From positions 1-64,000 of the IMG/VR virus record IMGVR_UViG_3300005253_000193: a stretch of 64,000 nt of DNA. One strand, 5' to 3'. Origin of the DNA: a virus. The notes under the pieces are model-generated. The model did not search any database and was not told the DNA's origin. It saw only the letters and a list, made by a program, of their open reading frames with translations. Shown piece by piece: positions 11,183 through 26,062 of the stretch. The position numbers and the translations under genes are program-made. Position 1 is the stretch's first letter, and every line of letters begins with the position of its first letter.

Positions 11183-11419
11183 TTAGAATCGGTGCATGTT
11201 TACGGCAAATCTGAAAGCCAGTACCGAGCCCGTGAATTTTCCGGGCATAAACCTACCACGCTTGCAGACACGAAAGTATTTGCGCTTGATTCTCCGGACG
11301 GAGTACCCCGTATACCGTTTATTCATACATACTCGTCGGTCTTCACCAATTTGGAAGTTCAGGTGGTAGAAAGTCTTTCCGTGCCATGCCGAAGCGTTTA
11401 CAAAGGGCTCCCGGCTCAT
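11183..11419 (-). CDS. Small basic protein with C-terminal Phe
   Basis: 78 residues, strongly basic middle (VRRIKRKYFRVCKRGRF), ending AFRFAVNMHRF. The terminal F-x-x-A-V-N-M-x-x-F resembles the C-terminal helix of the small-protein superfamily (compare SVNKF and NMDKF). GGGAGGGGATC precedes ATG 11419. Function unknown; nucleic-acid contact is plausible from charge. Confidence 0.55.
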   Translation of the reverse strand: MSREPFVNASAWHGKTFYHLNFQIGEDRRVCMNKRYTGYSVRRIKRKYFRVCKRGRFMPGKFTGSVLAFRFAVNMHRF

Positions 11420-11451
11420 GATCCCCTCCCATACTGTGCTTATACCATAAT

Positions 11452-11475
11452 GAGCGGGCCGAGAATCGCCCGCTC
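11452..11475 (-). repeat. GC-rich hairpin
   Basis: GAGCGGGC, 8-nt loop, GCCCGCTC in the 121-nt gap between the 11183 and 11541 genes. No T-tract; a processing or attenuation stem is possible. A second inverted repeat (CACCTCC/GGAGGTT) lies nearby at 11510-11523. Confidence 0.5.
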
Positions 11476-11540
11476 AATGCGTTCGTCTGTGTTTTGGGTA
11501 CTTGGGGGGCACCTCCTGGAGGTTCGTTGCCCTATAAGGC

Positions 11541-11786
11541 TTAGAGTTGCTGGATATTGGTGACCTTCCACATGAAGGACTTCCAACGCTCCTCGGTTGG
11601 GGGTTCATCCCCCGCCATGAGCAGTCTGACCTCCCTTCTCCTGAACTCGTCTGGGCTGCCATGCTTGCCGGGGAACGCCTTGGCGGCATCCACCGACATA
11701 TAGGGCCAGCAGTTGTCGTACCGAAGCATGTCGGCGGGGAAGTCCCCGCCTCCTTCGACGGTAAAGAGAGTTTTCCTGGTCGTCAT
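11541..11786 (-). CDS. Hypothetical protein
   Basis: 81 residues, leader CAGGAGGAGAAA-ATG. Contains DNCWPYMSVDAA and a charged helix (DEFRRREVRLLMAG) resembling small phage proteins of unknown role. No Cys cluster or membrane segment. Not recognised. Confidence 0.6.
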   Translation of the reverse strand: MTTRKTLFTVEGGGDFPADMLRYDNCWPYMSVDAAKAFPGKHGSPDEFRRREVRLLMAGDEPPTEERWKSFMWKVTNIQQL

Positions 11787-11823
11787 TTTCTCCTCCTGTT
11801 GCTGTCCTGTTAAATGGACAAAA

Positions 11824-11870
11824 GGAAGGGGCTTATTACTGATGGTTTACTGATTCGCCATGGCCCTTCC
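11824..11870 (-). repeat. Single-copy intergenic hairpin (box type)
   Basis: Minus strand: GGAAGGGCC-A, 9 nt, AGTAAACCA, 8 nt, GCCCCTTCC. One stem position is a mismatch relative to the other copies. Confidence 0.7.
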
Positions 11871-11876
11871 CTAATC

Positions 11877-12443
11877 CTAGTAGTTTCCATCGGCAACTTG
11901 GAAGCAGGTCAGACCCTCTTCCCGCCACATGTCGACCATCTGTTGCCTGTCGTCGATGACGAAGTGAATAAGATAGGCTGCTCTGATCAAGGCCAGCATG
12001 TCCTTCTTGACAAGGACATCCTTGCGGCTATCTCCGTCACACCTCATGTAGAGGTCATCGTACTCGACGTAGTTCCTTTTAAGCCAGTCCTCGGTCACTG
12101 CTTTGTGCTCTTCATAGCGAGCAGTAACCAGGACAATCTTGAAGCCAAGCGCCTTGCAAGCGTGAAGGATGTTGGCCACGGGATAGCAAACGACGTCGTC
12201 CTTCATGCCTGCAAAGAACGACTTCCAATCAGCCTTGGTAAGTTTGCTTTCACAAGTAGTGCAAATGCGACCCCTTACTTCATCGAGCACCCAAACAGTC
12301 CTACGCTCCCGAGGACAGTTGGGACAATAACGATCGATGAAGTGTCTGCGATGATCGATGTTGGCGAGTGTGCCGTCGATGTCGCATAGCACGGCAAACT
12401 TCGTGCCCGGTGGATGGATGGTGACTCCTTTTGTTTCACTCAT
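11877..12443 (-). CDS. HAD phosphatase (polynucleotide 3'-phosphatase-like) with zinc insert
   Basis: 188 residues. HAD motif I DIDGTLA (about residue 21), motif II-type VTARYEEH (about 104) and a C-terminal acidic motif VIDDRQQMVDMW (about 163) match the 3'-phosphatase domain of T4 polynucleotide kinase-like proteins. An insert holds CPNC and CTTC, probably a zinc-binding hairpin over the active site. No kinase P-loop is present. Likely role: end-healing of nucleic acids or nucleotide dephosphorylation. Leader AGGAGGAGATT-ATG. Confidence 0.75.
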   Translation of the reverse strand: MSETKGVTIHPPGTKFAVLCDIDGTLANIDHRRHFIDRYCPNCPRERRTVWVLDEVRGRICTTCESKLTKADWKSFFAGMKDDVVCYPVANILHACKALGFKIVLVTARYEEHKAVTEDWLKRNYVEYDDLYMRCDGDSRKDVLVKKDMLALIRAAYLIHFVIDDRQQMVDMWREEGLTCFQVADGNY

Positions 12444-12480
12444 AATCTCCTCCTGTTGCTATCCTGATAAATGGATAAAT

Positions 12481-12527
12481 GGAAGGACTTCAGATCATTG
12501 GGCTTCTATGTCCACTTGGTCCTTCCA
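12481..12527 (-). repeat. Single-copy intergenic hairpin (box type)
   Basis: Minus strand: GGAAGGACC-A, 9 nt, AGAAGCCCA, 8 nt, AGTCCTTCC. C-to-A/G-to-T changes on opposite arms keep the stem. Confidence 0.75.
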
Positions 12528-12529
12528 AA

Positions 12530-12718
12530 TCAGAACTTGTTTACGCTGTTAGCAAACCTGTCGGCGTCGCGCTTGCGAAGGAAAGAGGCGTACTGGATTA
12601 TGCGCCCAATTCTAACCCCTTCAAGATAATTCTCAAAGACTATGTCGTTGTTTTTTATCACGTAGCATCGGTTTTCTCCGACGCCTCTGGCCACGTAGTA
12701 GCGTTTCTTTCTACGCAT
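12530..12718 (-). CDS. Small-protein superfamily member ending VNKF
   Basis: 62 residues, basic start MRRKKRYYVARG, a beta-rich middle, then FLRKRDADRFANSVNKF, which matches the F-x4-(E/D)A-x2-F-x3-(Y/V)N-x-F C-terminus of the YNAF genes. Stand-alone gene with leader GGAGGAGATC-ATG. It shows that the terminal Phe is kept even where no gene overlap demands it. Confidence 0.6.
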   Translation of the reverse strand: MRRKKRYYVARGVGENRCYVIKNNDIVFENYLEGVRIGRIIQYASFLRKRDADRFANSVNKF

Positions 12719-12749
12719 GATCTCCTCCGCTGCTCTAAAAGTGCTAAAT

Positions 12750-12796
12750 GGAAGGGGCTAACAGGTTTTGGGCTGCTGACGGTCTATGGCCCCTCC
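12750..12796 (-). repeat. Single-copy intergenic hairpin (box type)
   Basis: Minus strand: GGGAGGGGC-CA, 9 nt, AGCAGCCCA, 8 nt, GCCCCTTCC. Confidence 0.7.
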
Positions 12797-12803
12797 CAAT
12801 CTC

Positions 12804-13001
12804 TCACTCAAGAATTTCCCGCGCTTGGGAAAGAGTATTGAAGTGCCTGACACAGCAGGCGTTACCAATCTTTTCAGGACTGACAACTTGGTATCTATCC
12901 ACCACCTCCTTGCCATCCTTGATGTGAAAAACTTTCTGCACGATGACAGGGACGGAGACGTTGTCGATCTTAGTGGTTCCCTTGTCCACATTGCGTAGCA
13001 T
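12804..13001 (-). CDS. Hypothetical small protein
   Basis: 65 residues from MLRNVDKGT with GGAGGAGATC upstream. Beta-rich, ending HFNTLSQAREILE, a weak echo of the F..xxEA.. helix in the superfamily but without the final Phe. Each gene around it sits alone with its own leader and hairpin. Function unknown. Confidence 0.55.
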   Translation of the reverse strand: MLRNVDKGTTKIDNVSVPVIVQKVFHIKDGKEVVDRYQVVSPEKIGNACCVRHFNTLSQAREILE

Positions 13002-13039
13002 GATCTCCTCCTTTGCCTTTGATTGATAAATGGACAAAT

Positions 13040-13087
13040 GGGAGGGACTAGTTGCCTATGGTTTTCTCGGGCCTATTGGTCCCTCCC
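13040..13087 (-). repeat. Single-copy intergenic hairpin (box type)
   Basis: Minus strand: GGGAGGGAC-CA, 9 nt, AGAAAACCA, 9 nt, GTCCCTCCC. Another compensatory stem variant. Confidence 0.75.
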
Positions 13088-13093
13088 AATCTC

Positions 13094-13411
13094 TCACCTC
13101 ATTTTGAATTGATCTAGCCGCCGCTGAAGGTACTTGCCGATGTCGTGATTGAAGGAAGCATTGGTTTTCCACTGCCATACGATGCATCTGGACACGTCCG
13201 AGTTAAAGGAAATCGGAGCAATTTCCACATTGAGTGGAATGTTTCCCTTGATATACTTGACCTTGCCAAAGGTATAGCCGATGCCACATGGACGCTCGAC
13301 CGTTAAAGGAACGCGCACGACGAATACGCGCCGCCCCTTGGACATGGAACCGCCAAAGGCTTGCATTGCGGCCTTTTGACTTCCCCATATATGACCAGAT
13401 TGTTCGGTCAT
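13094..13411 (-). CDS. Hypothetical protein
   Basis: 105 residues from MTEQSGHIW with GGAGGAGATC-ATG. Beta-rich, basic, ending YLQRRLDQFKMR. Its upstream leader carries the TGCCAA-TTTGGCA version of the small stem seen before most Shine-Dalgarno sites here. Not recognised. Confidence 0.55.
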   Translation of the reverse strand: MTEQSGHIWGSQKAAMQAFGGSMSKGRRVFVVRVPLTVERPCGIGYTFGKVKYIKGNIPLNVEIAPISFNSDVSRCIVWQWKTNASFNHDIGKYLQRRLDQFKMR

Positions 13412-13465
13412 GATCTCCTCCGTTGCTGCCAAATTGGCAAACAAGGCACAGGAAACATCCCATGC

Positions 13466-13684
13466 CTAAAATTTATCCATGTTTTCACAGAACGCATGGG
13501 CAAGCTCTTCGCTTTCAAACCATTGAATGTTTAACCAACCCTCCTTTCTGAGTCTGGCCTCATGACGTAGATGGTCTGATTTGAAGGTTCCATTCGCGTA
13601 GTTGGTCCTGGCCTTGCCCCACGAGTACCTACCCTTCAATACATCATCGGTCCTACAACCAGCCCAATACTGCTTCTCTGCCAT
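13466..13684 (-). CDS. Small-protein superfamily member ending MDKF
   Basis: 72 residues from MAEKQYWAG. Ends WFESEELAHAFCENMDKF, matching the F-x4-E-(A)-x2-F-x3-N-x-F signature. The start has AAAGGAAGAAACC rather than the usual GGAGGAG. The N-terminal YW resembles the W-V-V start of YNAF genes. Function unknown. Confidence 0.6.
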   Translation of the reverse strand: MAEKQYWAGCRTDDVLKGRYSWGKARTNYANGTFKSDHLRHEARLRKEGWLNIQWFESEELAHAFCENMDKF

Positions 13685-13703
13685 GGTTTCTTCCTTTGTC
13701 CAT

Positions 13704-13829
13704 TTACTTTGTTGGACGCTTGATAGTATGTCGAAGGGAACGACGTTCATGTCGATTTCGTGGCCTTCCCGTTATTGGCCCAACGATCCATTCCAGGAGC
13801 AACCATACCCATCGCCCCAATCGCTTCAT
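13704..13829 (-). CDS. 41-residue amphipathic/membrane peptide
   Basis: Short gene starting MKRLGRWVWLLLEWIVG with TGGAGGAGATT-ATG. A Trp-rich hydrophobic helix is followed by a very basic tail (RPRNRHERRSLRHTIKR). Looks like a membrane-active or membrane-anchored peptide; could be a small host-takeover factor. Longer in-frame starts exist but only this one has the regional leader. Confidence 0.5.
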   Translation of the reverse strand: MKRLGRWVWLLLEWIVGPITGRPRNRHERRSLRHTIKRPTK

Positions 13830-13860
13830 AATCTCCTCCATTGCTTTGTAATTGATTAAA

Positions 13861-13905
13861 GAGGGGGCTTTTGTCGATTGGGTTTCTAACCACGTATGGC
13901 CCCCT
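13861..13905 (-). repeat. Single-copy intergenic hairpin (box type)
   Basis: Minus strand: AGGGGGC-CA, 9 nt, AGAAACCCA, 8 nt, GCCCCCTC. Confidence 0.7.
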
Positions 13906-14161
13906 AATGGAAGGTTGGTTTGTCGAAGCACCCATCTTTATTAGGACAGATGCTGCATACTTTGGCCTTCAACAGGTCATTCACAAAGTTTGAGCTCTCT
14001 TCCATGGACCTGAAAGAGGCTAGTACAGTCCAACCCTCACGTTTTTCAACGCACGTCTTGGAGTCGCCATGAAGGAAAACGTCGGCGTTAACCACCTCGA
14101 TAGTGACGTCACCTTCTCCAGTGGTATCTGAACTTATGACCAGGTATTTGTTCTCGGGCAT
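13904..14161 (-). CDS. Superfamily-like protein with C-terminal Cys cluster
   Basis: 85 residues. The middle holds FRSMEESSNFVNDLL, the family-type helix, but instead of stopping after it the protein continues with CSICPNKDGCF, a small metal-binding-like knuckle. GGAGGAGATC precedes ATG 14161. It may be a family member extended by a zinc motif (inference). Confidence 0.55.
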   Translation of the reverse strand: MPENKYLVISSDTTGEGDVTIEVVNADVFLHGDSKTCVEKREGWTVLASFRSMEESSNFVNDLLKAKVCSICPNKDGCFDKPTFH

Positions 14162-14193
14162 GATCTCCTCCCATCGTCTTAAATTGTCAAAAT

Positions 14194-14239
14194 GGAGGGG
14201 CTTGGCAACTTGGGATTTCTACCGGTCTATGGCCCCTCC
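14194..14239 (-). repeat. Single-copy intergenic hairpin (box type)
   Basis: Minus strand: GGAGGGGC-CA, 9 nt, AGAAATCCC, 8 nt, GCCCCTCC. The B box is AGAAATCC, as in the arrays. Confidence 0.75.
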
Positions 14240-14242
14240 AAA

Positions 14243-14419
14243 TCAGAAGGCATCGTAAGCGGCCCCAAAGGCCATGGCTTTCTTTGCGGTGGCAAATTTC
14301 GCCAACACTTTGTAAGGACCTTTAAGTCCCTCTTTGGTTTGTAGCTGAGACTTAGTTGTTATTGAACAGAATTGGCGTTGTGCCCATTGCACAACCCACC
14401 ATTTTCCTGACGTTGACAT
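14243..14419 (-). CDS. 58-residue superfamily member ending YDAF
   Basis: Starts MSTSGKWWVVQWAQ after TAGGAGGACGAA and ends KFATAKKAMAFGAAYDAF. Both hallmarks of the YNAF family are present: the W-V-V start and the F-x4-A-x2-F-x2-(A)Y-x-A-F end. It is free-standing, with no overlapping neighbour. It lies immediately downstream (leftward) of the ncRNA-like stretch. Confidence 0.65.
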   Translation of the reverse strand: MSTSGKWWVVQWAQRQFCSITTKSQLQTKEGLKGPYKVLAKFATAKKAMAFGAAYDAF

Positions 14420-14439
14420 TTCGTCCTCCTACAAAAGTG

Positions 14440-15262
14440 ATTAAAGAGAGGGGAGGACAACGGACCGTGAAATGGCCCGCATAGATATCCTCCCCTCCCC
14501 AGCAATAGGAGGAGGAGACTCACCCCATTCAGCACTACCCAATGTCCGCCGATCCAGCACCGTCCTTCTCGCACCGTTTGACAACGTATTACATAGTAGC
14601 GTGCGTGATGATGCAATCAAACATCACCGTATTGTTTTTCCTTGGTAGGGGCCTTACCCACATGCTGAAGAAAGCACCAGCTTACGTGATACTCATAATC
14701 AGCAACAGCCTACAGCATTACGTCGTGAAAGTACAAGAAGTGATAAAGCGCATTAGAAGCGCAAGGCACCACGGTCCCGCCCACTAGGGGGCAGCATCTT
14801 ACTACGGACATCCTCTTATGCTTATCCGACTAAAGAACGTCGGCCCACCCGTACCTTTTACAGCCAGAGATGGGGGGCAGTGGGACCGGACTCATCCGGG
14901 TCTCTCATCCACCGTGCGATCATCATTAGGGGACCAAACGGTCCAGCCATCCTCAGCACCCGGTCCATCGTTCCCTATACAGTAGCAAAGGGGATGATGA
15001 GACCAACTGCCTAGCCAGGGTAGCCAGGGCGTCGGTTCCCTTCGATCCGTTTTACCACTCAGCGGGGCGGGAATTTTTAGTACCTTCTTTCGCTGCCCCG
15101 GTGGCCTCCGGTTTTTGGGGAGTTCCGTCTTAGGTCTCCCGAGCTGCTAGTTCTTGACGAACCAGCCCTACCCAAACACACACATTTCTAGGTAGTATGC
15201 AATTATGGCACATGGTATACATCCTTACAACAGGATATATATATCATATACATCGGTGTTAA
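14440..15262 (-). ncRNA. Candidate large structured ncRNA (about 820 nt)
   Basis: A gene-free stretch in a region where genes are otherwise packed. The minus strand has no credible frame but many strong local stems: CCGG-rich arms near 15090-15120, CGGA-TGAG-TCCG near 14895, GGACC/GGTCC pairs near 14930-14950. Its 3' end is a long stem, AGGGGAGGA to TCCTCCCCT (14450-14505), with a GGGCCA loop motif. Size and setting resemble the giant phage RNAs GOLLD and ROOL, but I cannot test this. Orientation is inferred from the flanking leftward genes. Confidence 0.5.
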
Positions 15263-15269
15263 TGAAAGG

Positions 15270-15461
15270 TTAACCAACTGTTGGGATGTTGTAGTCCCAC
15301 CAATCAGAAAGCTTCCTAAAGGTGCTTTTCCTCTTGTGCCTGTCGGAGTGATCACGAAGTGCTTCTCCGATCAGCCTTGCCTCTTTGAGGTCCAGAAACA
15401 AAACCACTTGACCCGGCTTGGCCTCACGAGTCTCATCCTCCATTACGATAGCATATCTCAT
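15270..15461 (-). CDS. Hypothetical small protein
   Basis: 63 residues, MRYAIVMEDETR start, charged helical middle (LDLKEARLIGEALRDH). GGATAGGAT upstream is a modest Shine-Dalgarno. It lies between the YNAF chain and the ncRNA candidate and has neither family hallmark. Function unknown. Confidence 0.5.
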   Translation of the reverse strand: MRYAIVMEDETREAKPGQVVLFLDLKEARLIGEALRDHSDRHKRKSTFRKLSDWWDYNIPTVG

Positions 15462-15496
15462 ATCCTATCCTTTCCTAGATGGCTGATGTCTCCTAT

Positions 15497-15703
15497 CTAA
15501 AACGCATTGTACAATCTCAGGAAGTCCGCAGCGGCCTTATGGTTGTCAAAGATCTTGATTATTGTGCAGCCCCCAAACTCCTTTTCGTATTCCTCAAGCC
15601 TGCCCTCTCTCACTATGTCTAACTGTACTTCCAGCCGTATGAAGTGCAGGGGTTCCCAAAGCTTCACCACATACCAGTCATCTGTATCTTCAGAAGGCGT
15701 CAT
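15497..15703 (-). CDS. YNAF-family protein 15 (last, not overlapping)
   Basis: 68 residues. N-terminus DDWYVVKLWEP replaces the usual WVVxxPxPGxVW; ends IFDNHKAAADFLRLYNAF. It is separated from copy 14 by 66 nt, so the overlap chain is broken here. The ATG in the expected overlap position has become ATA. Confidence 0.7.
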   Translation of the reverse strand: MTPSEDTDDWYVVKLWEPLHFIRLEVQLDIVREGRLEEYEKEFGGCTIIKIFDNHKAAADFLRLYNAF

Positions 15704-15769
15704 GCAGTCTCACAAAACGTACAGCGTCATCCATTTCAGACATCACAAGCACCCATGATCAATCAACTC

Positions 15770-16015
15770 CTAGAAAATATTGTAGCACTTCTGAAAGTGT
15801 ATTGCCTCCTCTCTGGTATTGAACCCGGCAATGGTCACATAAGTCTCTAGAGGATGGTGACACAGATATTTAGAAGACAGTTCGCTTCTACGCTCGTTTG
15901 TTACAATAGCTTTTCTAGTCCCTCTATAGGCACCCAAATTCCACAATGTTCCACCCACAGGAATAACAACTTGCCAGTATTTGTTCAACAGTTTTGGTCT
16001 GCGTCTAGAAATCAT
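15770..16015 (-). CDS. YNAF-family protein 14
   Basis: 81 residues, the longest copy. Starts MISRRRPK and has YWQVVIPVGGTLWN, TRKAIVTN, then FNTREEAIHFQKCYNIF. Its start lies in the YNDF codons of copy 13, so the one-base change that made Ala into Asp there also made Pro into Ile here. The overlap is 11 nt. Confidence 0.72.
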   Translation of the reverse strand: MISRRRPKLLNKYWQVVIPVGGTLWNLGAYRGTRKAIVTNERRSELSSKYLCHHPLETYVTIAGFNTREEAIHFQKCYNIF

Positions 16016-16226
16016 TATACACCTTCACAAAATTGCTGGCCGCGCGGAGGTCATCAAATTCCGCTATGGTCCTGGTTTGTGCCTTCCAAAATTTGTTCCC
16101 ATGCAAGACGGAGACGGGATCAAGATACACGGCCCTTCTATGAGTGTCCTGATGACTTCCGAGATTAGTCTCACTCCAGAGCTTTCCGTCCTCCTTTGGT
16201 ATGACTACATTGTATCTAGAAGGCAT
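16005..16226 (-). CDS. YNAF-family protein 13 (ends YNDF)
   Basis: 73 residues starting MPSRYNVVIPKEDGKLW. Retains HRRAV and a FDDLRAASNFVKVYNDF end. Start overlaps copy 12 by 11 nt. Confidence 0.72.
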   Translation of the reverse strand: MPSRYNVVIPKEDGKLWSETNLGSHQDTHRRAVYLDPVSVLHGNKFWKAQTRTIAEFDDLRAASNFVKVYNDF

Positions 16227-16425
16227 TGTACAGCTCACAATATTTTACAGCTTCCAAGGTCTGACCTTCCTCAAAACGAGCTATTACCACCGCCCCTCTA
16301 TAAGGTTCCACGTATCTTACTTCCCCAACCCATTTGTACGACATGTAGATCCTTGCTTGCATCCCGTCTCCAGCGAGAATGCAAAGGCCGACCGTTCGTT
16401 TCTTTTTTCTACGTCTAAAATGCAT
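16216..16425 (-). CDS. YNAF-family protein 12 (divergent, basic start)
   Basis: 69 residues starting MHFRRRKKKR. The W-V-V/PG motif is lost, but YRGAVVIARFEEGQTLEAV and ELYNAF remain. The overlap bases are ATGCATTTTAG, giving MHF and AF-stop in the two frames. Confidence 0.68.
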   Translation of the reverse strand: MHFRRRKKKRTVGLCILAGDGMQARIYMSYKWVGEVRYVEPYRGAVVIARFEEGQTLEAVKYCELYNAF

Positions 16426-16648
16426 TGTACATATCCAAGAATTGGTGCGCTTCCGCATGTGATGTAAATTCCTTGATCAACGTATAGGAATCCATACTTC
16501 TCCCGGAAAACTTCCCAAAGTCGATGTCCTCCCACTCTTTCATTGATGGATGAATGAAGGCTCCGTCAAGGTCAAGGCGACGAACCACAAAATAGCGGAC
16601 ATAGATTCCTTCGCTAACCATCAATGACTCTATTGCCCTAGAAGGCAT
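16415..16648 (-). CDS. YNAF-family protein 11 (divergent)
   Basis: 77 residues starting MPSRAIESLMV. YFVVRRLDLDG is a trace of the N-terminal strand; the end is FTSHAEAHQFLDMYNAF. The longer upstream frame to 16741 lies inside copy 10 and is not used. 11-nt overlap. Confidence 0.68.
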   Translation of the reverse strand: MPSRAIESLMVSEGIYVRYFVVRRLDLDGAFIHPSMKEWEDIDFGKFSGRSMDSYTLIKEFTSHAEAHQFLDMYNAF

Positions 16649-16859
16649 TGTATAAGTCCCTAAAGGCGGCGGACTCCTGTAAATCTTTAAACACACCAAG
16701 GATAGTGAGAATGCTTCCTTCACTAGTGACACTGGACGCATCCCTAAATCTTATGGAGACGGCTTTTCTAGGGTGCCGAGAAGGAGACACCGTCTCATTC
16801 CATACCATCCCAGGAGGTGGAAGCACAACAACCCATTGACTAGTAAAATCAAAAGGCAT
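16638..16859 (-). CDS. YNAF-family protein 10
   Basis: 73 residues, MPFDFTSQWVVVLPPPGMVW start, HPRKAVSIRF centre, LGVFKDLQESAAFRDLYNAF end: a complete typical member. 11-nt overlaps on both sides. Confidence 0.78.
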   Translation of the reverse strand: MPFDFTSQWVVVLPPPGMVWNETVSPSRHPRKAVSIRFRDASSVTSEGSILTILGVFKDLQESAAFRDLYNAF

Positions 16860-17040
16860 TGTACAAATCCCTTAATTGATCTGCTTTCTGTCTCTCCGTA
16901 AACTTACCAAGGACCTCATAGATTTCGTGAAGTACTCTGTCTGCCTCCCTACTAGAGTGTTGTGACGTGAAAGCCAGTGGTCTTATAGAAGACTTGCTGA
17001 TCAATACATAGTAAAGTCCCTTTCCTTTTTTAGAAGGCAT
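16849..17040 (-). CDS. YNAF-family protein 9 (short, divergent)
   Basis: 63 residues, MPSKKGKGLYYVLISKS start; the PG-VW motif is missing. Ends LGKFTERQKADQLRDLYNAF. 11-nt overlaps on both sides. Confidence 0.7.
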   Translation of the reverse strand: MPSKKGKGLYYVLISKSSIRPLAFTSQHSSREADRVLHEIYEVLGKFTERQKADQLRDLYNAF

Positions 17041-17257
17041 TGTACATCCTTTTAAATTGCTGTGCATCTTTCAGCTCATAGAAGCTGGCAATGATCTTAT
17101 AGTGGGATGGAAGTTCGTCTATTTTTTTCCTTATGATGGCTCTGTTAGTTTCCATAGCGGGAACTGTTTTCCATTCCTTTTTAGGAACAAGAACCATGTA
17201 TTCCCCCACACCCATTTTCTGATAGAAATCCAACATGGACACGTTTTCAGAAGGCAT
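17030..17257 (-). CDS. YNAF-family protein 8 (divergent)
   Basis: 75 residues, MPSENVSMLDF start, then YMVLVPKKEWKTV and NRAIIRKK in place of the typical motifs; ends FYELKDAQQFKRMYNAF. 11-nt overlaps on both sides. Confidence 0.7.
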   Translation of the reverse strand: MPSENVSMLDFYQKMGVGEYMVLVPKKEWKTVPAMETNRAIIRKKIDELPSHYKIIASFYELKDAQQFKRMYNAF

Positions 17258-17468
17258 TGTACATGTTCCTAAATAATGTGGCTTCATTCAAATTGTCAAA
17301 CACACCAAGGAAGCAAACAATAGAACCAACATAGGTATAATGATGAATGCTTGCCCAATTAGTGATGATCGCTCTCCGTGTTCCTATAAGGAATGACAAA
17401 CCCCCTTCCCACACCCTTCCAGGGCCAGGTATCATAATAATAAATTGATCATTGAGTTCAGAAGGCAT
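17247..17468 (-). CDS. YNAF-family protein 7
   Basis: 73 residues, MPSELNDQFIIMIPGPGRVW start, GTRRAIITNW centre, LGVFDNLNEATLFRNMYNAF end. Typical. 11-nt overlaps on both sides. Confidence 0.76.
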   Translation of the reverse strand: MPSELNDQFIIMIPGPGRVWEGGLSFLIGTRRAIITNWASIHHYTYVGSIVCFLGVFDNLNEATLFRNMYNAF

Positions 17469-17667
17469 TGTAAGCATCCTTGAGCCTTACAGCTTCCCTC
17501 AATTTATCAAACTTACCAAGCAGGATGCAATCCTCAAAGCCCTCTGCGACCTGCTCAACCACGGTAGCTCTTCTAGTACCCTGACAACCCATCCATTGTT
17601 GATGCCGTTGATACCACACTTCGCCTGGAGGGGGTAAGACCACGGTCCATCTTAAATCAGAAAGCAT
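17458..17667 (-). CDS. YNAF-family protein 6
   Basis: 69 residues, MLSDLRWTVVLPPPGEVW start, GTRRATVV centre, LGKFDKLREAVRLKDAYNAF end. The overlap has CTT for CCT, so the start reads MLS while YNAF is unchanged. Confidence 0.76.
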   Translation of the reverse strand: MLSDLRWTVVLPPPGEVWYQRHQQWMGCQGTRRATVVEQVAEGFEDCILLGKFDKLREAVRLKDAYNAF

Positions 17668-17863
17668 TGTACGCATCCCTAAACTTCAGCGCCTTTTTGT
17701 GATCATCAAACTTTCCAAGGACAATACATCGTTTAATTAGGGATTTGATTGAAGTTGAAGTCAGAGCTGCTCTTCTGGTGCCATTATGCATCCATTTTCT
17801 ACTCCATACCTCACCAGGAGGTGGAAGCATAACAACCCAAGGACCGCGAAATTTAGAAGGCAT
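17657..17863 (-). CDS. YNAF-family protein 5
   Basis: 68 residues, MPSKFRGPWVVMLPPPGEVW start, GTRRAALTS centre, LGKFDDHKKALKFRDAYNAF end. Close relative of copy 6, suggesting recent tandem duplication. 11-nt overlaps on both sides. Confidence 0.78.
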   Translation of the reverse strand: MPSKFRGPWVVMLPPPGEVWSRKWMHNGTRRAALTSTSIKSLIKRCIVLGKFDDHKKALKFRDAYNAF

Positions 17864-18092
17864 TGTAGTTGTTCCTGAGGACTAATGCTTCTCCCAACTC
17901 AGCAAAAGCGCCAAGAATGGAAACAATGCCCATACCCGGATAGACTTCAGAATTTAAACTGGCGTAGCGAAAAGAAGCAGAACATCTACAGCTATGTTTG
18001 ACCCATGGCCCGATTCTGTTCCATACCTTTCCAGGCCGAGGAATGACAACCACCCACAAATCATTTACCTCGGCATAATAATCAGAACGCAT
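17853..18092 (-). CDS. YNAF-family protein 4
   Basis: 79 residues, MRSDYYAEVNDLWVVVIPRP start, then GKVWN, a Cys/Arg centre CRCSASFRYA, and LGAFAELGEALVLRNNYNAF end. 11-nt overlaps on both sides. Confidence 0.76.
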   Translation of the reverse strand: MRSDYYAEVNDLWVVVIPRPGKVWNRIGPWVKHSCRCSASFRYASLNSEVYPGMGIVSILGAFAELGEALVLRNNYNAF

Positions 18093-18309
18093 TGTAGCCG
18101 TTCCTAAAGGTCGCACCATCCACATGATCATCAAACACACCAAGGATGGAAACGATCCCTACATCCTTATTGGCAAAATACGATATGTTGTTATAGAGCA
18201 GGAGAACCGCCATCCTTTTACCCTGCTTTGATCCCATATGTTCCCCCCACGTCAATCCAGGCCGAGGAACAATGACGACCCATTGATCCCCTAGTCCATC
18301 AAAAGGCAT
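18082..18309 (-). CDS. YNAF-family protein 3
   Basis: 75 residues, MPFDGLGDQWVVIVPRPG start, KRMAVLLLYN centre, LGVFDDHVDGATFRNGYNAF end. Its stop TGA overlaps as TTTTGA, giving MPF in the next frame. 11-nt overlaps on both sides. Confidence 0.76.
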   Translation of the reverse strand: MPFDGLGDQWVVIVPRPGLTWGEHMGSKQGKRMAVLLLYNNISYFANKDVGIVSILGVFDDHVDGATFRNGYNAF

Positions 18310-18541
18310 TGTATAGATTCCGAAATATTACTGCCTCCGCAGAAGTGTTGAACACGCCGATGAAGGAAACCAATCCCACTTCGATATTAACCAGTGGGAG
18401 GATGCCACCATAACGACATATAGCAGCTTGTCTGATTTCAGAAGAGCTGGGGGGAAAGAGGGAGAAATGGATGGAATCCCCCCACACAACTCCAGGTCGA
18501 GGAAGCATCACAACCCAGGAGTCGTTGTTGTTAGAAGGCAT
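18299..18541 (-). CDS. YNAF-family protein 2
   Basis: 80 residues, MPSNNNDSWVVMLPRPGVVW start, IRQAAICRYGG centre, IGVFNTSAEAVIFRNLYNAF end. The central block closely matches copy 1 (ICRYxGxL, VSFIGVF). 11-nt overlaps on both sides. Confidence 0.77.
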   Translation of the reverse strand: MPSNNNDSWVVMLPRPGVVWGDSIHFSLFPPSSSEIRQAAICRYGGILPLVNIEVGLVSFIGVFNTSAEAVIFRNLYNAF

Positions 18542-18773
18542 TGTACAAATCCTGGAATATCCTTGCCTCCGTGGAAGTGTCAAACACGCCGATGAAGGAG
18601 ACTATCCCCAGTTCAAGATTGACGCGAAGGAGACTGCCAGCGTAACGACATATGGCAGCCCTTCTGGTATTGTGGAAGAAAGGGAAAGGTGAGGCAGGAT
18701 CCATTGAACTATGTTTCCACACCTTACCAGGAGCAGGAATGATAACAACCCAAGTTTTATCAAGAGAGACCAT
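18531..18773 (-). CDS. YNAF-family protein 1 (first of chain)
   Basis: 80 residues, MVSLDKTWVVIIPAPGKVW start; the domain layout is defined here. A W-V-V-x-x-P-x-P-G-x-V-W strand/turn is followed by a T-R-R-A-A strand, a variable loop, G-x-V-S-x-x-G-V-F strand, and a helix xxEAxxFxxLYNAF at the very C-terminus. The ATG at 18773 has no upstream family member. Leftward transcription presumably starts in the control region to the right. No known family is recognised; the small alpha/beta fold is inferred from pattern only. Confidence 0.74.
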   Translation of the reverse strand: MVSLDKTWVVIIPAPGKVWKHSSMDPASPFPFFHNTRRAAICRYAGSLLRVNLELGIVSFIGVFDTSTEARIFQDLYNAF

Positions 18774-20731: not shown

Positions 20732-20778
20732 GCCTGGACGTTGTTCCAGTTACTATTCATCTTCCTGGGTCTACAGGG

Positions 20779-20806: not shown

Positions 20807-20984
20807 CCATATGTCCTGGTGGGCGGCTTCTTCTTTTGGGTTTCGTCCTCCTCATCTTCTTCCGGGGTTGAGCGTTGGACAGCATATGAGGATTAAGACG
20901 ACTCTTTTTGCGGGTGCATCTTCCACACCCCCTGTTTAAAATAGTAGCATGTTTAATTACACGGCAAACAAGGGAGTTGGAGCA

Positions 20985-21455
20985 ATGGCAAAAAAGAGAA
21001 CGTACCCTGTGGGCGTGGCCGATATAGAAGGCCACAGCTACACAGCCCGCTTTGACACGATGAAGGAGAAGCGGGAGTACCTGGAGTTGAAGGAGAAGCT
21101 GAACGCCGCCGGTTTTAAGTATGGCATGTGGTTTGCGAGTGAAGGATTTTGGCCCACCGCCGCCTGGAAATTGGTGGGTAGGCACTTCCTCCTCAGCTTG
21201 GCCAGTGCCACCATGATGAAGGATGCAGGGGGAAACCCGTGCCACGAAGACGCGTTTGGCGAACCGCGCCACCAAGGGGAATACAGCTACTTGTTCGTCT
21301 ACGTGGGGCCGTTTGACGAGGAGTGGGAGCTTGGGGAACCACCGCTTGTAGACGGAGACTTCCCCGAAAAGCATTGGCAGATGATTTTCAATAACGCGGT
21401 GGAAGCTGCGGACTTTGCCAACAGGTTTATACCGGCGGGCAAGCCACTCTTCTAA
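20985..21455 (+). CDS. Hypothetical protein, paralogue of 22611 gene
   Basis: 156 residues from MAKKRTYPVG; GGGAGTTGGAGCA precedes ATG. Shares with the 22611 protein an N-terminal helix ending in AGF/AGY-x-Y, a GPF-x-x-EW-x-x-G segment and a C-terminal F-N-N-A-V-E-A-A-D-F-A-N-R-F helix. The final residues are KPLF, so the terminal Phe of the small-protein superfamily appears again. Function unknown. Confidence 0.62.
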   Translation: MAKKRTYPVGVADIEGHSYTARFDTMKEKREYLELKEKLNAAGFKYGMWFASEGFWPTAAWKLVGRHFLLSLASATMMKDAGGNPCHEDAFGEPRHQGEYSYLFVYVGPFDEEWELGEPPLVDGDFPEKHWQMIFNNAVEAADFANRFIPAGKPLF

Positions 21456-21467
21456 CCCACCGATTTC

Positions 21468-21489
21468 TGAAACTTCCGGGGTTAGTATA
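21468..21489 (+). repeat. 22-nt motif copy, identical to 811-832
   Basis: TGAAACTTCC followed by GGGGTTAGTATA. Here it overlaps the left arm of the terminator at 21476. Confidence 0.65.
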
Positions 21490-21503
21490 GGCCCCGGTTT
21501 TTT
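21476..21503 (+). terminator. Intrinsic terminator
   Basis: CCGGGG, 10-nt loop TTAGTATAGG, CCCCGG, TTTTTT, following the 20985 gene. Confidence 0.8.
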
Positions 21504-21687
21504 ATCCTCCGGTTTTCTTGTTGTTCTTCTTCGCAGCGGGTCTGTGATGCCATCCTCTTCTTCCCAGGGGGCTGTCGTGGCCCTTGGAAGACTTTGTTCT
21601 TTGAAGGTTTTTGTGGGTGCATCACTTGGGCAACACGTTTACACTGGTAACATGCTTAATTACACGGCAACACGGGAGTTTCGAAAC

Positions 21688-21876
21688 ATGGCATACGTGA
21701 TTTGGAAGCGGCCCAACTGGTTCCTCCACAAAGGCACTTTTAAGGATGCTCGCCAAGTGCCGCAGAGCAGTGCGCGATGGACGAGGAAAGTGGAACACGC
21801 CCAAAGATTTGATGCCTACTGGGCTGCGGAGTGGGCTTGCAGGCATCTGGACTTCACGATTGTGAAGGAGGTGTAG
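21688..21876 (+). CDS. Hypothetical small protein
   Basis: 62 residues from MAYVIWKRPNWF. The 5' leader (CATGCTTAATTACACGGCAA) is nearly identical to that of the 20985 gene, so the two share an upstream element. The C-terminal YWAAEWACRHLDF helix loosely fits the superfamily helix. Followed at once by the 21881 gene with AAGGAGGTG between, so probably coupled. Confidence 0.55.
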   Translation: MAYVIWKRPNWFLHKGTFKDARQVPQSSARWTRKVEHAQRFDAYWAAEWACRHLDFTIVKEV

Positions 21877-21880
21877 GACG

Positions 21881-22159
21881 ATGACCAACACGATTGTTGA
21901 AGTACCAACACCCCACTCGCTCTTCGAGACCCTAAGCCCAAACATGGTGGCGGAGTGCATACCCGGCGTACAGGGCGATCTATATCGTCTTCTTTGGGCG
22001 CTGGTACACAAGCACAAAAGAGAAGCGAGACCGGGAGCACCGGATTGCCTGGCCCGCTTCTGGAAACAGATTCCCAGAGAAAGCCAATGGGAGTTGAACA
22101 GCTTGGCCAGGAAGCATGAACTTTACCTTGCGGATTTGCTCCTACTTGTCCAAGAGTAG
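21881..22159 (+). CDS. Hypothetical helical protein
   Basis: 92 residues, AAGGAGGTGTAGGACG ahead of ATG. Helical and amphipathic, with one CLARFW segment. Four bases after the stop of the 21688 gene and 19 nt before the 22179 gene: a three-gene unit. Not recognised. Confidence 0.6.
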   Translation: MTNTIVEVPTPHSLFETLSPNMVAECIPGVQGDLYRLLWALVHKHKREARPGAPDCLARFWKQIPRESQWELNSLARKHELYLADLLLLVQE

Positions 22160-22178
22160 ACACAAAGGAGTTAGGACA

Positions 22179-22403
22179 ATGCGTACCATCATCATCATAC
22201 TGCTCACCTTCTACACCATCATACTTGCCACCACCGCCTGGATGCTCTGCTTCGAGGTCTTCATCCCGGCGTTTGGTGGGTGGATACCTTTCGGGATGAT
22301 CACCTTGGCGGTTCCTCTGACGGCCGTGCTTGCCGGGGGTTACGTGGCGCTGGAGGACCTGGAGTTTGAGGAGTGGTTGAGGACCCACCCTGAGTCCTCC
22401 TGA
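22179..22403 (+). CDS. Small two-pass membrane protein
   Basis: 74 residues from MRTIIIILLTFYTII. Two hydrophobic helices (about 3-25 and 32-57) and an acidic C-terminus. AAAGGAGTTAGGACA precedes ATG. Inner-membrane protein of unknown role; holin-sized but far from the lysis cluster. Confidence 0.6.
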   Translation: MRTIIIILLTFYTIILATTAWMLCFEVFIPAFGGWIPFGMITLAVPLTAVLAGGYVALEDLEFEEWLRTHPESS

Positions 22404-22412
22404 GCAGCCGGG

Positions 22413-22452
22413 GGAAGGACGGAGTTTAGCCGTGGGCTCCGTCCTTTCCTTT
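22413..22452 (+). terminator. Intrinsic terminator
   Basis: AAGGACGGAG, 12-nt loop, CTCCGTCCTT, TCCTTTA. Confidence 0.75.
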
Positions 22453-22610
22453 ACAGGGCACAGTATCCTCTTCTTCCCGAGCCCTCAGACAGGAAGAGGC
22501 GCTCGGCGGACACGAAGATTAATGAACCAATGGCTTCTTCCTACAGGGTGTTTTACTATATTTACATGCTTGCTACACACCTGCACTCGGCAAACAAAGG
22601 AGTAGAAATT

Positions 22611-22973
22611 GTGGAACATTTAAAGGCGGAAAATGACTTCCAGGAAGCGAGGGAGTTTCTCAACAGCGCCGGGTATAGCTACATGGAAGATGCCGCAAAC
22701 CCGGAGATGAAATTCGAGGCGGCCTGGAAGGATCATCCTAACGGCCTGTTGGTGCAGCTAACGGATGGAACCAAGGAGGAACCATTTTACTACCCGGTGG
22801 GGTTAAGCCAACCCTGCCATGTAGTAATATACCAGCGGCCCTTTAACCGGGAATGGAAGTTTGGAGATACTCCCTACAACCCGGATGAGGATCCTGTGGA
22901 TGTTTCCTGGGAAATATCGTTCAAAGACATCTCCACGGCAGTAAGCTTCTTGGAAAGGTTCATCTCCAAGTAA
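22611..22973 (+). CDS. Hypothetical protein, paralogue of 20985 gene
   Basis: 120 residues. GTG start with AAAGGAGTAGAAATT upstream; longer in-frame starts to 22530 lack a ribosome site. Matches the 20985 protein in layout: LNSAGYSY, RPFNREWKFGDTP, and a C-terminal FKDISTAVSFLERFISK helix. Function unknown. Confidence 0.58.
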   Translation: MEHLKAENDFQEAREFLNSAGYSYMEDAANPEMKFEAAWKDHPNGLLVQLTDGTKEEPFYYPVGLSQPCHVVIYQRPFNREWKFGDTPYNPDEDPVDVSWEISFKDISTAVSFLERFISK

Positions 22974-22988
22974 AACCGGCCTACCAGT

Positions 22989-23012
22989 TCTGAAACTTCC
23001 CAGCTCTGTATA
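22989..23012 (+). repeat. ACTTCC...CTGTATA motif copy
   Basis: TCTGAAACTTCCCAG then CTCTGTATAGG. Confidence 0.5.
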
Positions 23013-23050
23013 GGTCTGTCGCGTCCGTGTCCATAATTCCTCTCGCTCTT

Positions 23051-23099
23051 CATCTTCCCAGCTCTGTATGTTTTTGACACTTCCGGCATCCGTATATCC
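23051..23099 (+). repeat. Two further ACTTCC/GTATA motif copies
   Basis: CATCTTCCCAGCTCTGTATG at 23051 and TTTGACACTTCCGG...CGTATATCC at 23073. Both upstream of the 23312 gene; a perfect AAATAACAA/TTGTTATTT inverted repeat follows at 23205-23228. Confidence 0.5.
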
Positions 23100-23311
23100 T
23101 CTTGCTCGCCGCGTCGTCCTCTTCTTCTCCCTGGCCGCCCGGCGGCCATGCACCACCGGGGAGAAGTGTACGCAAACCCCGTGCCAAACTGGCCCAAATT
23201 AAAATAACAATTTGTTGTTATTTTGTTTGCGTTTGGCAAAACGCCCATGGTAGGCTACTTATTACCAGCCGGGGCGCGGTTGCCCTGGCCCGCAACAAGG
23301 GGTACTTACCA

Positions 23312-23812
23312 ATGCCAAAGCAAACCACCAAAACCACCGCCGCCGCCGTTGCCAACAACAAAGCCGCCCGCAACTTGTGGCCCAAGTTGGCAAACTGGCC
23401 TAAAAACGCTGGCCCCGCGCCAACCTTGGCGCAGTTAAACCAAGCCGTTAACCTGGGCTACCGTGCGGGCGCGGCTAATTGTTTGGCGGTGGCAATGTAC
23501 TTGCGCCAGGGTGGCGCTAACCAAAAGGTACAGGTTAGCGCAGCCTGTAATGGCCCGCAGCTAAATGTTTGGCGTGCCATACGCGCCACCGGCAAAACAC
23601 GCAGCGGGGCAAACGTGTATAGTGCGCAGGCAAGCCACACCGTACAGGGCAAGCGCATTACCGCCTATATAGTGCGGGTTGCCAAACCCAAGGCCCCAAG
23701 CAAGCCGCGCAAGGCTGCCAAGGTTGCCAGTGCTGGCAAGCCCGGTGGTAGCCCGGCGGTAGCCCAGGGTGTTGCCCCCCCTGCCAACCCTGCCGCGCCC
23801 ACCACGGCTTAA
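23312..23812 (+). CDS. HTH-like paralogue with Pro/Ala tail
   Basis: 166 residues. Core LAVAMYLRQGGANQKVQV, GPQLNVWRAI, GKRITAYIVRV aligns with the 20179 protein over about 90 residues; the N-terminal tail (QTTKTTAAAVANN) and C-terminal Lys/Ala/Pro tail also match in style. Codons strongly favour GCC, TTG and AAC and the pentamer TTGGC recurs, unlike the close paralogue at 20179, so it may have been acquired separately. ATG 23312 has only AAGGGGTAC upstream. Confidence 0.68.
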   Translation: MPKQTTKTTAAAVANNKAARNLWPKLANWPKNAGPAPTLAQLNQAVNLGYRAGAANCLAVAMYLRQGGANQKVQVSAACNGPQLNVWRAIRATGKTRSGANVYSAQASHTVQGKRITAYIVRVAKPKAPSKPRKAAKVASAGKPGGSPAVAQGVAPPANPAAPTTA

Positions 23813-23837
23813 CCTGGCGGCTTACAGCCACACCTAT

Positions 23838-23875
23838 AACCACCCCCTGGGTACTGCCTGGGGGGCGGTTTAGTT
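23838..23875 (+). terminator. Terminator-like hairpin
   Basis: AACCACCCCC, loop, GGGGGCGGTT, then TAGTTG. Stem strong, T-tract weak. Confidence 0.6.
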
Positions 23876-24065
23876 GGGGCAACCCCCTCCCCCACCGGCA
23901 GGGGCACCCTCCTCTTGTATCAGGCGAGATTCCAGAGGGTCAACCCTGTCTCAAAAATACTGTCAGAAATCTCAGGGGATTTCTAGAGGGTGTATCGCGC
24001 GACCGTTTGTCCTTTATCGTCGCACTAATATCCCAACCGATATCTTTGCCCTTAGCAAGCACCAC

Positions 24066-24390
24066 TCAAAAAAGAGAGCAGTTGTACAGGAAACGTGCGG
24101 CTTCATCCTGGGTGGGGAAGGGTTTCCGCCCAATGGAAGAAAGGATTATACCACGGTCGGAGGGATACCACTTATCCCCTAATTTGGTTATGCTTCCCAA
24201 CAGTATGCTCGGTGGATCGGTGAATCCAAGGGCATTCCCTGACCACACCTCCAAAACGTAGATATTTGTAGTCCTCACAAAATGCCATTTCTTTAATATT
24301 GGGTCTGCGTACATCATCGGTTTTCTCAGAACTGTGAATATGCCTTGAGTATCTTCGCGCAATGTTATCTGGGATTAGGGTCCATAACAT
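24066..24390 (-). pseudogene. Superfamily gene with apparent frameshift
   Basis: A good leader (GAGGAGCTATC-ATG) starts MLWTLIPDNIARR, but that frame yields an atypical C-terminus. The other frame, open from 24362 to 24066, gives the expected superfamily end FPTQDEAARFLYNCSLF and a YVLEVWSG strand. Joining the two frames near 24360 would give one protein of about 107 residues. Either a real frameshift, a sequencing error, or two starts in one RNA. Confidence 0.45.
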
Positions 24391-24399
24391 GATAGCTCC

Positions 24400-24771
24400 T
24401 CAAAACTTTGAGCTTAGCAGAAGATACATGGCGGCTTCATGCCGGGTTGGGAACTCTGGAGGATTGCGTACTGTTTTATGGGAGTCGACATCCTCCGTGA
24501 AAAGGACTGCCTTTGCTTCTGAATCATGTACTATGGCATAATATTTTAAGCCTTCGACCACTTCTATTATTGCGCCAGCCGAAGTTGGGAAATGTTGAAA
24601 GAGAGACTGTTCACTATCAAACACTGACCAACGCTGCATTTTCCTCTTTTGGATTGGATCATGGTGTTGAGATGATTCTATCAGCACATAGGGTCGGTCC
24701 TTGCCGGAAGCAATTGTGGCATCATCCGTTAAGGGACGGCTTACCCAAACTTCGTGTAGTTTAGAAGACAT
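24400..24771 (-). CDS. Superfamily member ending SSKF
   Basis: 123 residues from MSSKLHEVWVSRPL, so it has the W-V-x-x-P start. Ends FPTRHEAAMYLLLSSKF, matching the F-x4-EA-x2-(F/Y)-x4-x-x-F signature. The ATG lies 30 nt inside the end of the 24741 gene. Longer than the YNAF genes because of an inserted beta region. Confidence 0.6.
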   Translation of the reverse strand: MSSKLHEVWVSRPLTDDATIASGKDRPYVLIESSQHHDPIQKRKMQRWSVFDSEQSLFQHFPTSAGAIIEVVEGLKYYAIVHDSEAKAVLFTEDVDSHKTVRNPPEFPTRHEAAMYLLLSSKF

Positions 24772-25223
24772 TTTGCGGCGATCTCCAATGTTTCCAGCTT
24801 TGGTGATATTTTCCAATTGTCCATTCCCTCGGGTTCTATCTTGAATTTATTTTCACAAGCATGTATAGATCCAAGAAAGATCATTGAATCAAAAGGAGCC
24901 GTTGTTGATGCTTGGAGGAGGGGTGCTGTTTGTCTGGCTGCGTTTGGGGCCGATGTGCACATTGCTCCGTCGGTGCTGCCCCAACTGAATGTTAGGTTAG
25001 AAGATGGTTGGCCGGGTCCGGGGGCAACATTTCCAGTTTGGGGCTGAGCCTGATTTTTGAGTTTGCTTTCTTGAACATGGGCTGTCCAGTGGTTGATGGC
25101 CTCTATCACTGCCGGATTTTCTTGATAGTTCGTTGAAGGAGCTTGCCTCGTCCCCGGTATATTGGGGGTAATTGTCACCCCGCAATCAAAAGTTTGCATG
25201 GCTGTTATTTCATTCTCTTGCAC
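24741..25223 (-). CDS. Superfamily-like protein with Pro/Gln-rich insert
   Basis: About 160 residues. The middle is Pro/Gln/Asn-rich and disordered-looking. The C-terminus LETLEIAAKCLLNYTKFG carries the helix and near-terminal Phe. The start is uncertain: GTG 25223 with GGGGGCAATTACT upstream, TTG 25238 directly after the previous stop, or ATG 25199. Confidence 0.5.
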   Translation of the reverse strand: MQENEITAMQTFDCGVTITPNIPGTRQAPSTNYQENPAVIEAINHWTAHVQESKLKNQAQPQTGNVAPGPGQPSSNLTFSWGSTDGAMCTSAPNAARQTAPLLQASTTAPFDSMIFLGSIHACENKFKIEPEGMDNWKISPKLETLEIAAKCLLNYTKFG

Positions 25224-25238
25224 AGTAATTGCCCCCAA

Positions 25239-25499
25239 TTAGAACTTATTCATGTTCAATATGAAGAAGTAAGCGTCCCCTAAGTTGTCAAAGACATATA
25301 ATCTACCATCCCATGGGATGATGTTGAAGTATAGCGTGGCCAAAAACACGTCACCGTCCTTTTTAATCCTTCCTATGTCTGTCAAAAGAAGGACATGATC
25401 TTTCCCTCTAATGAATATTGTTACAGTCCAGAACTTTTCTTCGGAGTCAGCATTGAAATATGTGCTTTCCAATTGTTCGCGTTTTGCTGATGTAGTCAT
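25239..25499 (-). CDS. Superfamily member ending MNKF
   Basis: 86 residues. FWTVTIFIRGKDHV in the N-terminal third and FDNLGDAYFFILNMNKF at the end: both family hallmarks, with the (E)A replaced by DA. GGGAGATTAATC precedes ATG 25499. Stop adjoins the next gene. Confidence 0.6.
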   Translation of the reverse strand: MTTSAKREQLESTYFNADSEEKFWTVTIFIRGKDHVLLLTDIGRIKKDGDVFLATLYFNIIPWDGRLYVFDNLGDAYFFILNMNKF

Positions 25500-25513
25500 G
25501 ATTAATCTCCCAA

Positions 25514-26062
25514 TTAGAACTTGTCTTCAATTTCTTGATAGTTCTCCGGGACCTTGATAACATGCACTTCTCTTATCAAGTAGTTTGATAGCCAGAAAGT
25601 ATCTTTTGTGGGACTGGATTGTCTTGGTGGGATAATCAACAGGAGTTTGTGAACTTTTTGTTTTCTGAGGTGTCCTTCAGGGTAGTTCCAGATTCCGGTC
25701 TTGCAAGTTCTTATTTCGCAGACCTGGGTAATGAGGCCTTTAAGCATTGAAAGTTCTTTCTCATAGATTTTTTTCTCTGGGTGTTGGCTAACGAATGCTC
25801 TTTCCAAGAGTCGTTGTATGTAGATCGTTGTGTCTCTGAATATCTCAAGATCGATTGTGTAGTCTATTCCGGTGCTTTCAAGGAGCTCGGCTGCTTTGAG
25901 TTCTGCTGCCTCTAGAAAGTCAGAAAACTCTTTTCCGTATCCACAACGAATAAAGTTCATGGGTTTGATTATTTTAACGTGATCCCCTACTTCTATAAGA
26001 CTTGGGTGCTGTGCGCCTTGGATATCGCCGTCGGAAACTTTTTTTGAACTTTCTCTTGACAT
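25514..26062 (-). CDS. Hypothetical protein ending EDKF
   Basis: 182 residues, larger than its neighbours, with a helical core (FSDFLEAAELKAAELLES) and a C-terminal beta segment HVIKVPENYQEIEDKF. The last five residues fit the terminal Phe pattern but the EA-helix is only partial. Fourteen bases upstream of the 25239 gene start. Not recognised. Confidence 0.5.
   Translation of the reverse strand: MSRESSKKVSDGDIQGAQHPSLIEVGDHVKIIKPMNFIRCGYGKEFSDFLEAAELKAAELLESTGIDYTIDLEIFRDTTIYIQRLLERAFVSQHPEKKIYEKELSMLKGLITQVCEIRTCKTGIWNYPEGHLRKQKVHKLLLIIPPRQSSPTKDTFWLSNYLIREVHVIKVPENYQEIEDKF

What the first reader, a model, noticed from the sequence alone, without database searches (positions are those of the whole stretch)
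11183..26062. A wider small-protein superfamily with a C-terminal Phe
Free-standing genes at 11183, 12530, 13466, 14243, 24066, 24400, 24741, 25239 and 25514 end MHRF, VNKF, MDKF, YDAF, CSLF, SSKF, TKFG, MNKF and EDKF, usually after F-x4-(E/D)A-x2-F. Several start with W-V-V-type strands. So the terminal Phe is kept where no overlap demands it, making it a probable functional tail, like the C-terminal Phe tails used for partner docking.
Basis: partly seen in the sequence, partly recalled or inferred. Interest (0 to 1): 0.7.

Follow-up and report, generated by a model that had tools for sequence, protein, structure and literature searches.

The report
Phage small proteins sharing C-terminal helix
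An uncultivated phage carries about 22 small related-looking proteins that end in the same short helix finishing on phenylalanine; the shared ending is real, but it looks like the last turn of a folded helix rather than a proven docking tail.

Summary
A matrix of the last 18 residues, trained only on the 15 overlapping array genes (15497-18773, minus strand), ranks 14243, 25239, 12530, 24400, 24066, 13466 and 11183 as the top seven of 907 other ORFs in the 106-kb virus record. Six carry the strict gapless motif F-x5-A-x2-F-x6-F-stop. 24741 (ends KFG) and 25514 do not fit. 24066 has an unclear start and probably a frame break.

The terminal Phe is a protein-level feature. At 13 of 13 array overlaps its first T is fixed although it is the third base of codon 2 of the next gene, while the Ala wobble before it varies.

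The docking-tail reading is not shown. AlphaFold2 on the array family puts the end in a confident helix after a three-strand sheet, and the spacing hardly varies. Related-looking neighbours lack the terminal Phe. Most likely the Phe is the last residue of a folded helix; in the array the same DNA also holds the next gene's ribosome-binding site and start. Only the C-terminal module, not a common whole fold, is demonstrated for the free-standing genes. No homologue was found elsewhere.

The parts
18531..18773 (-). array gene 1 (MVSLDKTWVV..YNAF)
18299..18541 (-). array gene 2
18082..18309 (-). array gene 3
17853..18092 (-). array gene 4
17657..17863 (-). array gene 5
17458..17667 (-). array gene 6
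17247..17468 (-). array gene 7
17030..17257 (-). array gene 8
16849..17040 (-). array gene 9
16638..16859 (-). array gene 10 (protein modelled)
16415..16648 (-). array gene 11
16216..16425 (-). array gene 12 (two-residue insertion before the helix)
16005..16226 (-). array gene 13 (ends YNDF)
15770..16015 (-). array gene 14 (ends YNIF; next gene not overlapping)
15690..15755 (-). array remnant: open frame WVLVMSEMDDAVRFVRLHDAF-stop that keeps A6-F9-F16 of the module; no ATG at its N-terminal end in frame
15497..15703 (-). array gene 15
14243..14419 (-). free-standing family member, ends AAYDAF; clear relative of the array
13466..13684 (-). free-standing gene with the C-terminal module (NMDKF); ATG at 13684 follows a GGAAG
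12530..12718 (-). free-standing gene with the module (SVNKF)
11183..11419 (-). free-standing gene with the module (NMHRF), weakest of the seven
25239..25499 (-). free-standing gene with the module (NMNKF)
24400..24771 (-). gene with relaxed module (LSSKF); its start lies inside gene 24741
24066..24362 (-). ORF with the module (NCSLF); start uncertain, probable frame break near 24340
13904..14161 (-). neighbour with the same strand-helix ending but Ala at the Phe position and a Cys-containing tail

Best explanation
The array genes and at least seven free-standing neighbours end in one shared C-terminal module: a beta strand ending in F, a turn, and a last helix with residues at fixed steps (F0, E/D5, A6, F9, Y/M/V13, F16), stopping directly after F16. 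In the array family this helix closes a small three-strand domain. The terminal Phe most likely serves the fold: it is the last residue of the helix, on the same side as F9 and residue 13, so it is kept whether or not the next gene overlaps. In the array the DNA for this helix does a second job: it carries a Shine-Dalgarno-like AGG/GGA about ten bases before an ATG inside Asn-Ala, so each stop is tied to the next start (translational coupling, inferred). The array arose by tandem duplication and divergence (inferred). Shown: the motif, its spacing, constraint in the Phe frame, the modelled helix for one array protein. Inferred: burial of the Phe, coupling, common descent of the free-standing genes. 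What the proteins do for the phage (I would guess small early accessory or host-interaction proteins) is a guess without direct evidence.
For: Motif 15 of 561 ORFs vs shuffled mean 0.01. Array-only PSSM puts seven reader genes at ranks 1-7 of 907. F57, Y70 and F73 invariant in 16 aligned proteins at 23-42% identity to the first. First base of the Phe codon T in 15 of 15 array genes; Ala wobble C9 T3 G2 A1 (that row also includes the Asp and Ile codons). Next gene's codon 2 third base T in 13 of 13 (CCT 9, CGT, CTT, CAT, ATT), 11 of them four-fold degenerate codons; codon 3 TCT 10, TTT 3, silent only in the Phe frame. AlphaFold2: E9-13, E34-37, H38-44, E52-57, H60-72, pLDDT 91, 94, 86 in the last blocks. 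AGG/GGA in 12 of 13 upstream windows vs 34% of array-internal windows. Coding score favours the annotated frame over both other frames in all 27 genes tested. Array vs free-standing alignment: hhalign probability 46.6%, E 0.0002, 29 C-terminal columns.
Against: The single-sequence model of 25239 shows no C-terminal helix and low confidence there (five models 75 to 40). The full-length HMM does not recover the free-standing genes significantly. A6 was built from genes most of which were chosen by the motif, so it is not independent. The copies are related, so positions are not independent trials.
Confidence: 0.55

Rival explanations
1. Docking tail: the C-terminal Phe with its free carboxylate is a recognition element that inserts into a pocket of a common partner.
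For: Phe is invariant at the very end in all 15 array genes and in 7 free-standing genes while other positions diverge; protein-frame constraint.
Against: The end is modelled as confident helix, not a flexible tail. Spacing to the core F9 and F0 is fixed (one two-residue exception, 16216). No acidic stretch before the Phe (NAF, NKF). No pocket protein identified. Related-looking neighbours end with other residues.
Confidence: 0.15
2. Convergence: the free-standing proteins are unrelated and merely share a common strand-turn-helix ending of small phage proteins.
For: Only about 18-29 residues match; N-terminal parts cannot be aligned well; whole-family HMM insignificant; fold prediction of 25239 unlike the array.
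Against: Gapless 17-residue register anchored on the stop codon in seven genes, all on the same strand within 14.5 kb and none in the rest of the record.
Confidence: 0.2
3. Relic: the Phe is inherited from overlapping ancestors or copied with DNA around the stop codon and has no function.
Against: Phe is constant although copies are mostly 23-42% identical and degenerate sites are scrambled; free-standing genes use both TTC and TTT.
Confidence: 0.1

Closest known systems
Uncharacterised 65-aa protein E0YIT7 of Lactococcus phage 949 (BFVD)
   Same: Best fold match of the array model in BFVD: probability 0.97, TM 0.60/0.66, nearly whole length
   Different: E-value 0.29, 13% identity: only a similar small fold
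DUF2188 domain proteins (BFVD A0A6J5S3A3)
   Same: Listed fold match, probability 0.66; the F-x-T-x-x-E-A strand-turn-helix ending is recalled as typical
   Different: E 1.3, TM 0.41/0.46; no Pfam match for any of the 16 proteins at E 0.001 or better, and the two families listed up to E 1 are not DUF2188
SSB / T7 gp2.5 C-terminal Phe tails
   Same: C-terminal Phe
   Different: Those tails are acidic and flexible (recalled); here the end is modelled as helix and has no acidic stretch
Translationally coupled overlapping genes
   Same: Stop-start overlap with an SD-like sequence inside the upstream gene
   Different: Here the overlap lies in a conserved helix-ending motif repeated through a 15-gene paralogue array

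Membership tests
The array's own C-terminal module family | F-x5-A-x2-F-x6-F-stop, gapless | tested here: met
The array's own C-terminal module family | Whole-protein homology of the free-standing genes to the array | tested here: inconclusive
   Clear only for 14243; others E 0.69 or worse
The array's own C-terminal module family | Same fold in a free-standing member | tested here: inconclusive
   25239 alone: five models 75 to 40 pLDDT, C-terminus 50-60
SSB-type C-terminal docking tails | Acidic stretch directly before the terminal Phe | tested here: not met
   Endings YNAF, NMNKF, SVNKF and similar
SSB-type C-terminal docking tails | Flexible tail outside the folded domain | tested here: not met
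   Array protein 16638: helix to residue 72 of 73, pLDDT 86-94 (one protein, a prediction)
SSB-type C-terminal docking tails | Phe needed for partner binding | not testable with these tools
   needs binding assays
DUF2188 and similar small phage folds | Profile match | tested here: not met
   No Pfam or PHROGs match at E 0.001 for any of 16 proteins
DUF2188 and similar small phage folds | Fold similarity | tested here: inconclusive
   Foldseek none at E 0.001; weak hits only; second look best Z 3.8
Translationally coupled gene pairs | Stop-start overlap with SD inside the upstream gene | tested here: met
   13 standard junctions, AGG/GGA in 12
Translationally coupled gene pairs | Downstream expression depends on upstream translation | not testable with these tools
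   needs reporter assays

The most novel reading that the evidence does not exclude
The helix-ending Phe with its free carboxylate is a shared plug that some 20 diversified small phage proteins present to one partner pocket, so that the phage fields a competing panel of adaptors or decoys whose variable sheets choose the target and whose common end chooses the machine.
Probability: 0.1. Interest if true: 0.75.

Novelty: new variant of a known kind. Interest (0 to 1): 0.4.

Why it matters
It describes a family of small phage proteins that matches no database searched here, defined by a C-terminal helix anchored on the stop codon, and shows one DNA stretch read in two frames (helix end, and RBS plus start) with the constraint visible in the upstream frame. 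It gives a simple way to find such genes. It does not show a new docking system.

Tried and rejected
Homologue searches that gave nothing usable: array and free-standing proteins against phages (one search gave one weak Bordetella phage match, E 0.04, not followed), single proteins in IMG/VR, junction patterns in IMG/VR and GTDB genomes (8, 5 and 2 stretches, judged chance matches or unrelated repeats after reading the ORFs), the WVVxxPxPGxVW pattern in IMG/VR (0; five copies in the window). The two IMG/VR records sharing the capsid gene showed no array match, but they are short (8 and 25 kb). The collections may leave out this virus's own or near records, so absence is weak evidence. Pfam, PHROGs, NCBIfam and PDB-sequence searches gave no significant family for the array; nor did PHROGs and Pfam for the free-standing genes. 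Profile-profile array vs 22530/20949: probability 1.8%.

Rejected: that overlap forces the Phe (the ATG only fixes Asn-Ala-type codons); that all nine genes belong (24741, 25514 do not). Phycobilisome-linker and polymerase fold hits have E above 1 or Z below 4 and were not used. VIA-align absence of other families proves nothing. Paper searches: listings only; in PMC9917605 I saw two reference-list passages. I make no claim that such arrays are absent from print.
Full report
Setting. The window is bases 1-64000 of a 105,963-base virus record. Its plus strand carries an HK97-type capsid gene (best phage match 49% identical, Burkholderia phage BgVeeders33) and large structural genes; the finding lies in the minus-strand genes to the left of them.

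Observation. Fifteen overlapping genes (18773 to 15497) end YNAF or a variant (YNDF, YNIF), as does 14243 (YDAF). I wrote the shared ending as a gapless motif counted from the first Phe: F0, A6, F9, F16, stop. Shuffles give a mean of 0.01 for the strict form and 0.13 for the relaxed one. No match occurs in the remaining 42 kb of the record.

Independent ranking. The top seven are 14243, 25239, 12530, 24400, 24066, 13466 and 11183. With the last residue ignored six of them are ranks 1-6 and 11183 is 9th; with the last four ignored six are ranks 1-6 and 11183 is 9th, behind 22530 (ends K) and 27665 (ends S). So seven of nine genes are supported, and the resemblance does not hang on the Phe alone. 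24741 and 25514 are not supported.

Limits of 'superfamily'. The full-length HMM finds its own 16 members, then 13904 (E 0.094), 22404-22973 on the plus strand (0.5) and 12530 (0.69); 13466 is at 13. Array against an alignment of five free-standing genes (12530, 13466, 11183, 25239, 13904): probability 46.6% over 29 C-terminal columns, with the caution that these genes had mostly been chosen by the motif; single comparisons give 3.5% and 5.7%. Common descent of the C-terminal module is likely; a common whole domain is not shown.

Which frame is constrained. In the standard overlap A-ATG-CNT-TYT, the first T of the Phe codon is the third base of codon 2 of the next gene. It is T in 13 of 13 standard junctions, 11 of them in four-fold degenerate codons, whereas the base before it, silent in the upstream Ala, varies and changes the next protein's second residue (Pro, Arg, Leu, His, Ile). 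TTC/TTT is silent upstream and Ser/Phe downstream. So the constraint follows the upstream protein. The copies are related by descent, so I give no probability.

Second use of the DNA. AGG or GGA lies 5-16 bases before the ATG in 12 of 13 standard junctions against 34% of 12-base windows inside array genes, consistent with translational coupling; not tested.

Structure. AlphaFold2 with 16 sequences for 16638: mean pLDDT 80.2, pTM 0.66, three strands, a short helix and a last helix 60-72 of 73. The tool gives no coordinates, so Phe burial is inferred from the helix and the spacing. The moment test is mixed. The second job, 25239 alone, gave five models of very unequal confidence, an all-strand best model and low confidence at the C-terminus: it does not settle the shared fold, though on its face it is against it. 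Fold searches give no match at E 0.001; the nearest are small uncharacterised phage proteins and DUF2188.

Genes themselves. Codon scores favour the annotated frame over both other frames in all 27 genes tested, though the own-frame scores are small (11183 is slightly negative). 24066 begins at a TTG without a clear ribosome site, while an ATG at 24390 with GAGGAG upstream opens another frame; the scores switch frame near 24340, so this gene is either frame-broken, mis-sequenced or recoded.

Terminal Phe is not universal. 13904 has the same ending with Ala at position 16 and then a Cys-containing tail; 12804 stops soon after the A6 position; 22530 on the plus strand ends in Lys at position 16 and 20949 runs on. 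These resemblances are weak, but they fit a helix that may end in several ways.

Verdict. A real C-terminal module, not listed in the libraries searched, in at least 22 small genes of one phage, most likely the closing helix of a small domain; docking is possible but unsupported.

Noticed in passing
window 10039-14496 (e.g. 12480-12527, 12749-12798, 13039-13088, 14193-14240, 14448-14497): Between the free-standing genes lie hairpins with 9-10 bp arms that differ in sequence but stay complementary (one has a mismatch) and loops of 30 bases (31 at 10039), several with a GAAnCC-like loop. Possible terminators or a regulatory element.
   Followed up: partly
window 15690-15755: Remnant of an array unit: first strand (WVLV) joined directly to the C-terminal helix (DDAVRFVRLHDAF), as if the middle were deleted; it keeps the overlap with gene 15497.
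   Followed up: partly
window 24066-24390: Gene with good SD and ATG in one frame and the module-bearing end in another; coding score switches near 24340.
   Followed up: partly
window 20949-21455 and 22530-22973 (+): Two plus-strand paralogues (31% identical) with a similar strand-helix ending; no phage match for 20949, no IMG/VR match for 22530.
   Followed up: partly
window 7760-9938: Minus-strand RNPxxxSEP-like repeat (plus strand GFL/GSL), a short-period repeat next to the gene cassettes.
   Followed up: no
window 3921-5111 and 10097-11110: A DUF2201 metallopeptidase/VWA-like protein and an AAA (MoxR-like) ATPase in the same minus-strand region, a pairing that recalls RavA-ViaA (recalled).
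   Followed up: no
window 14650-15220: About 570 bases between genes 15270 and 14243 with no clear gene and no Rfam match; may hold an unlisted RNA.
   Followed up: no
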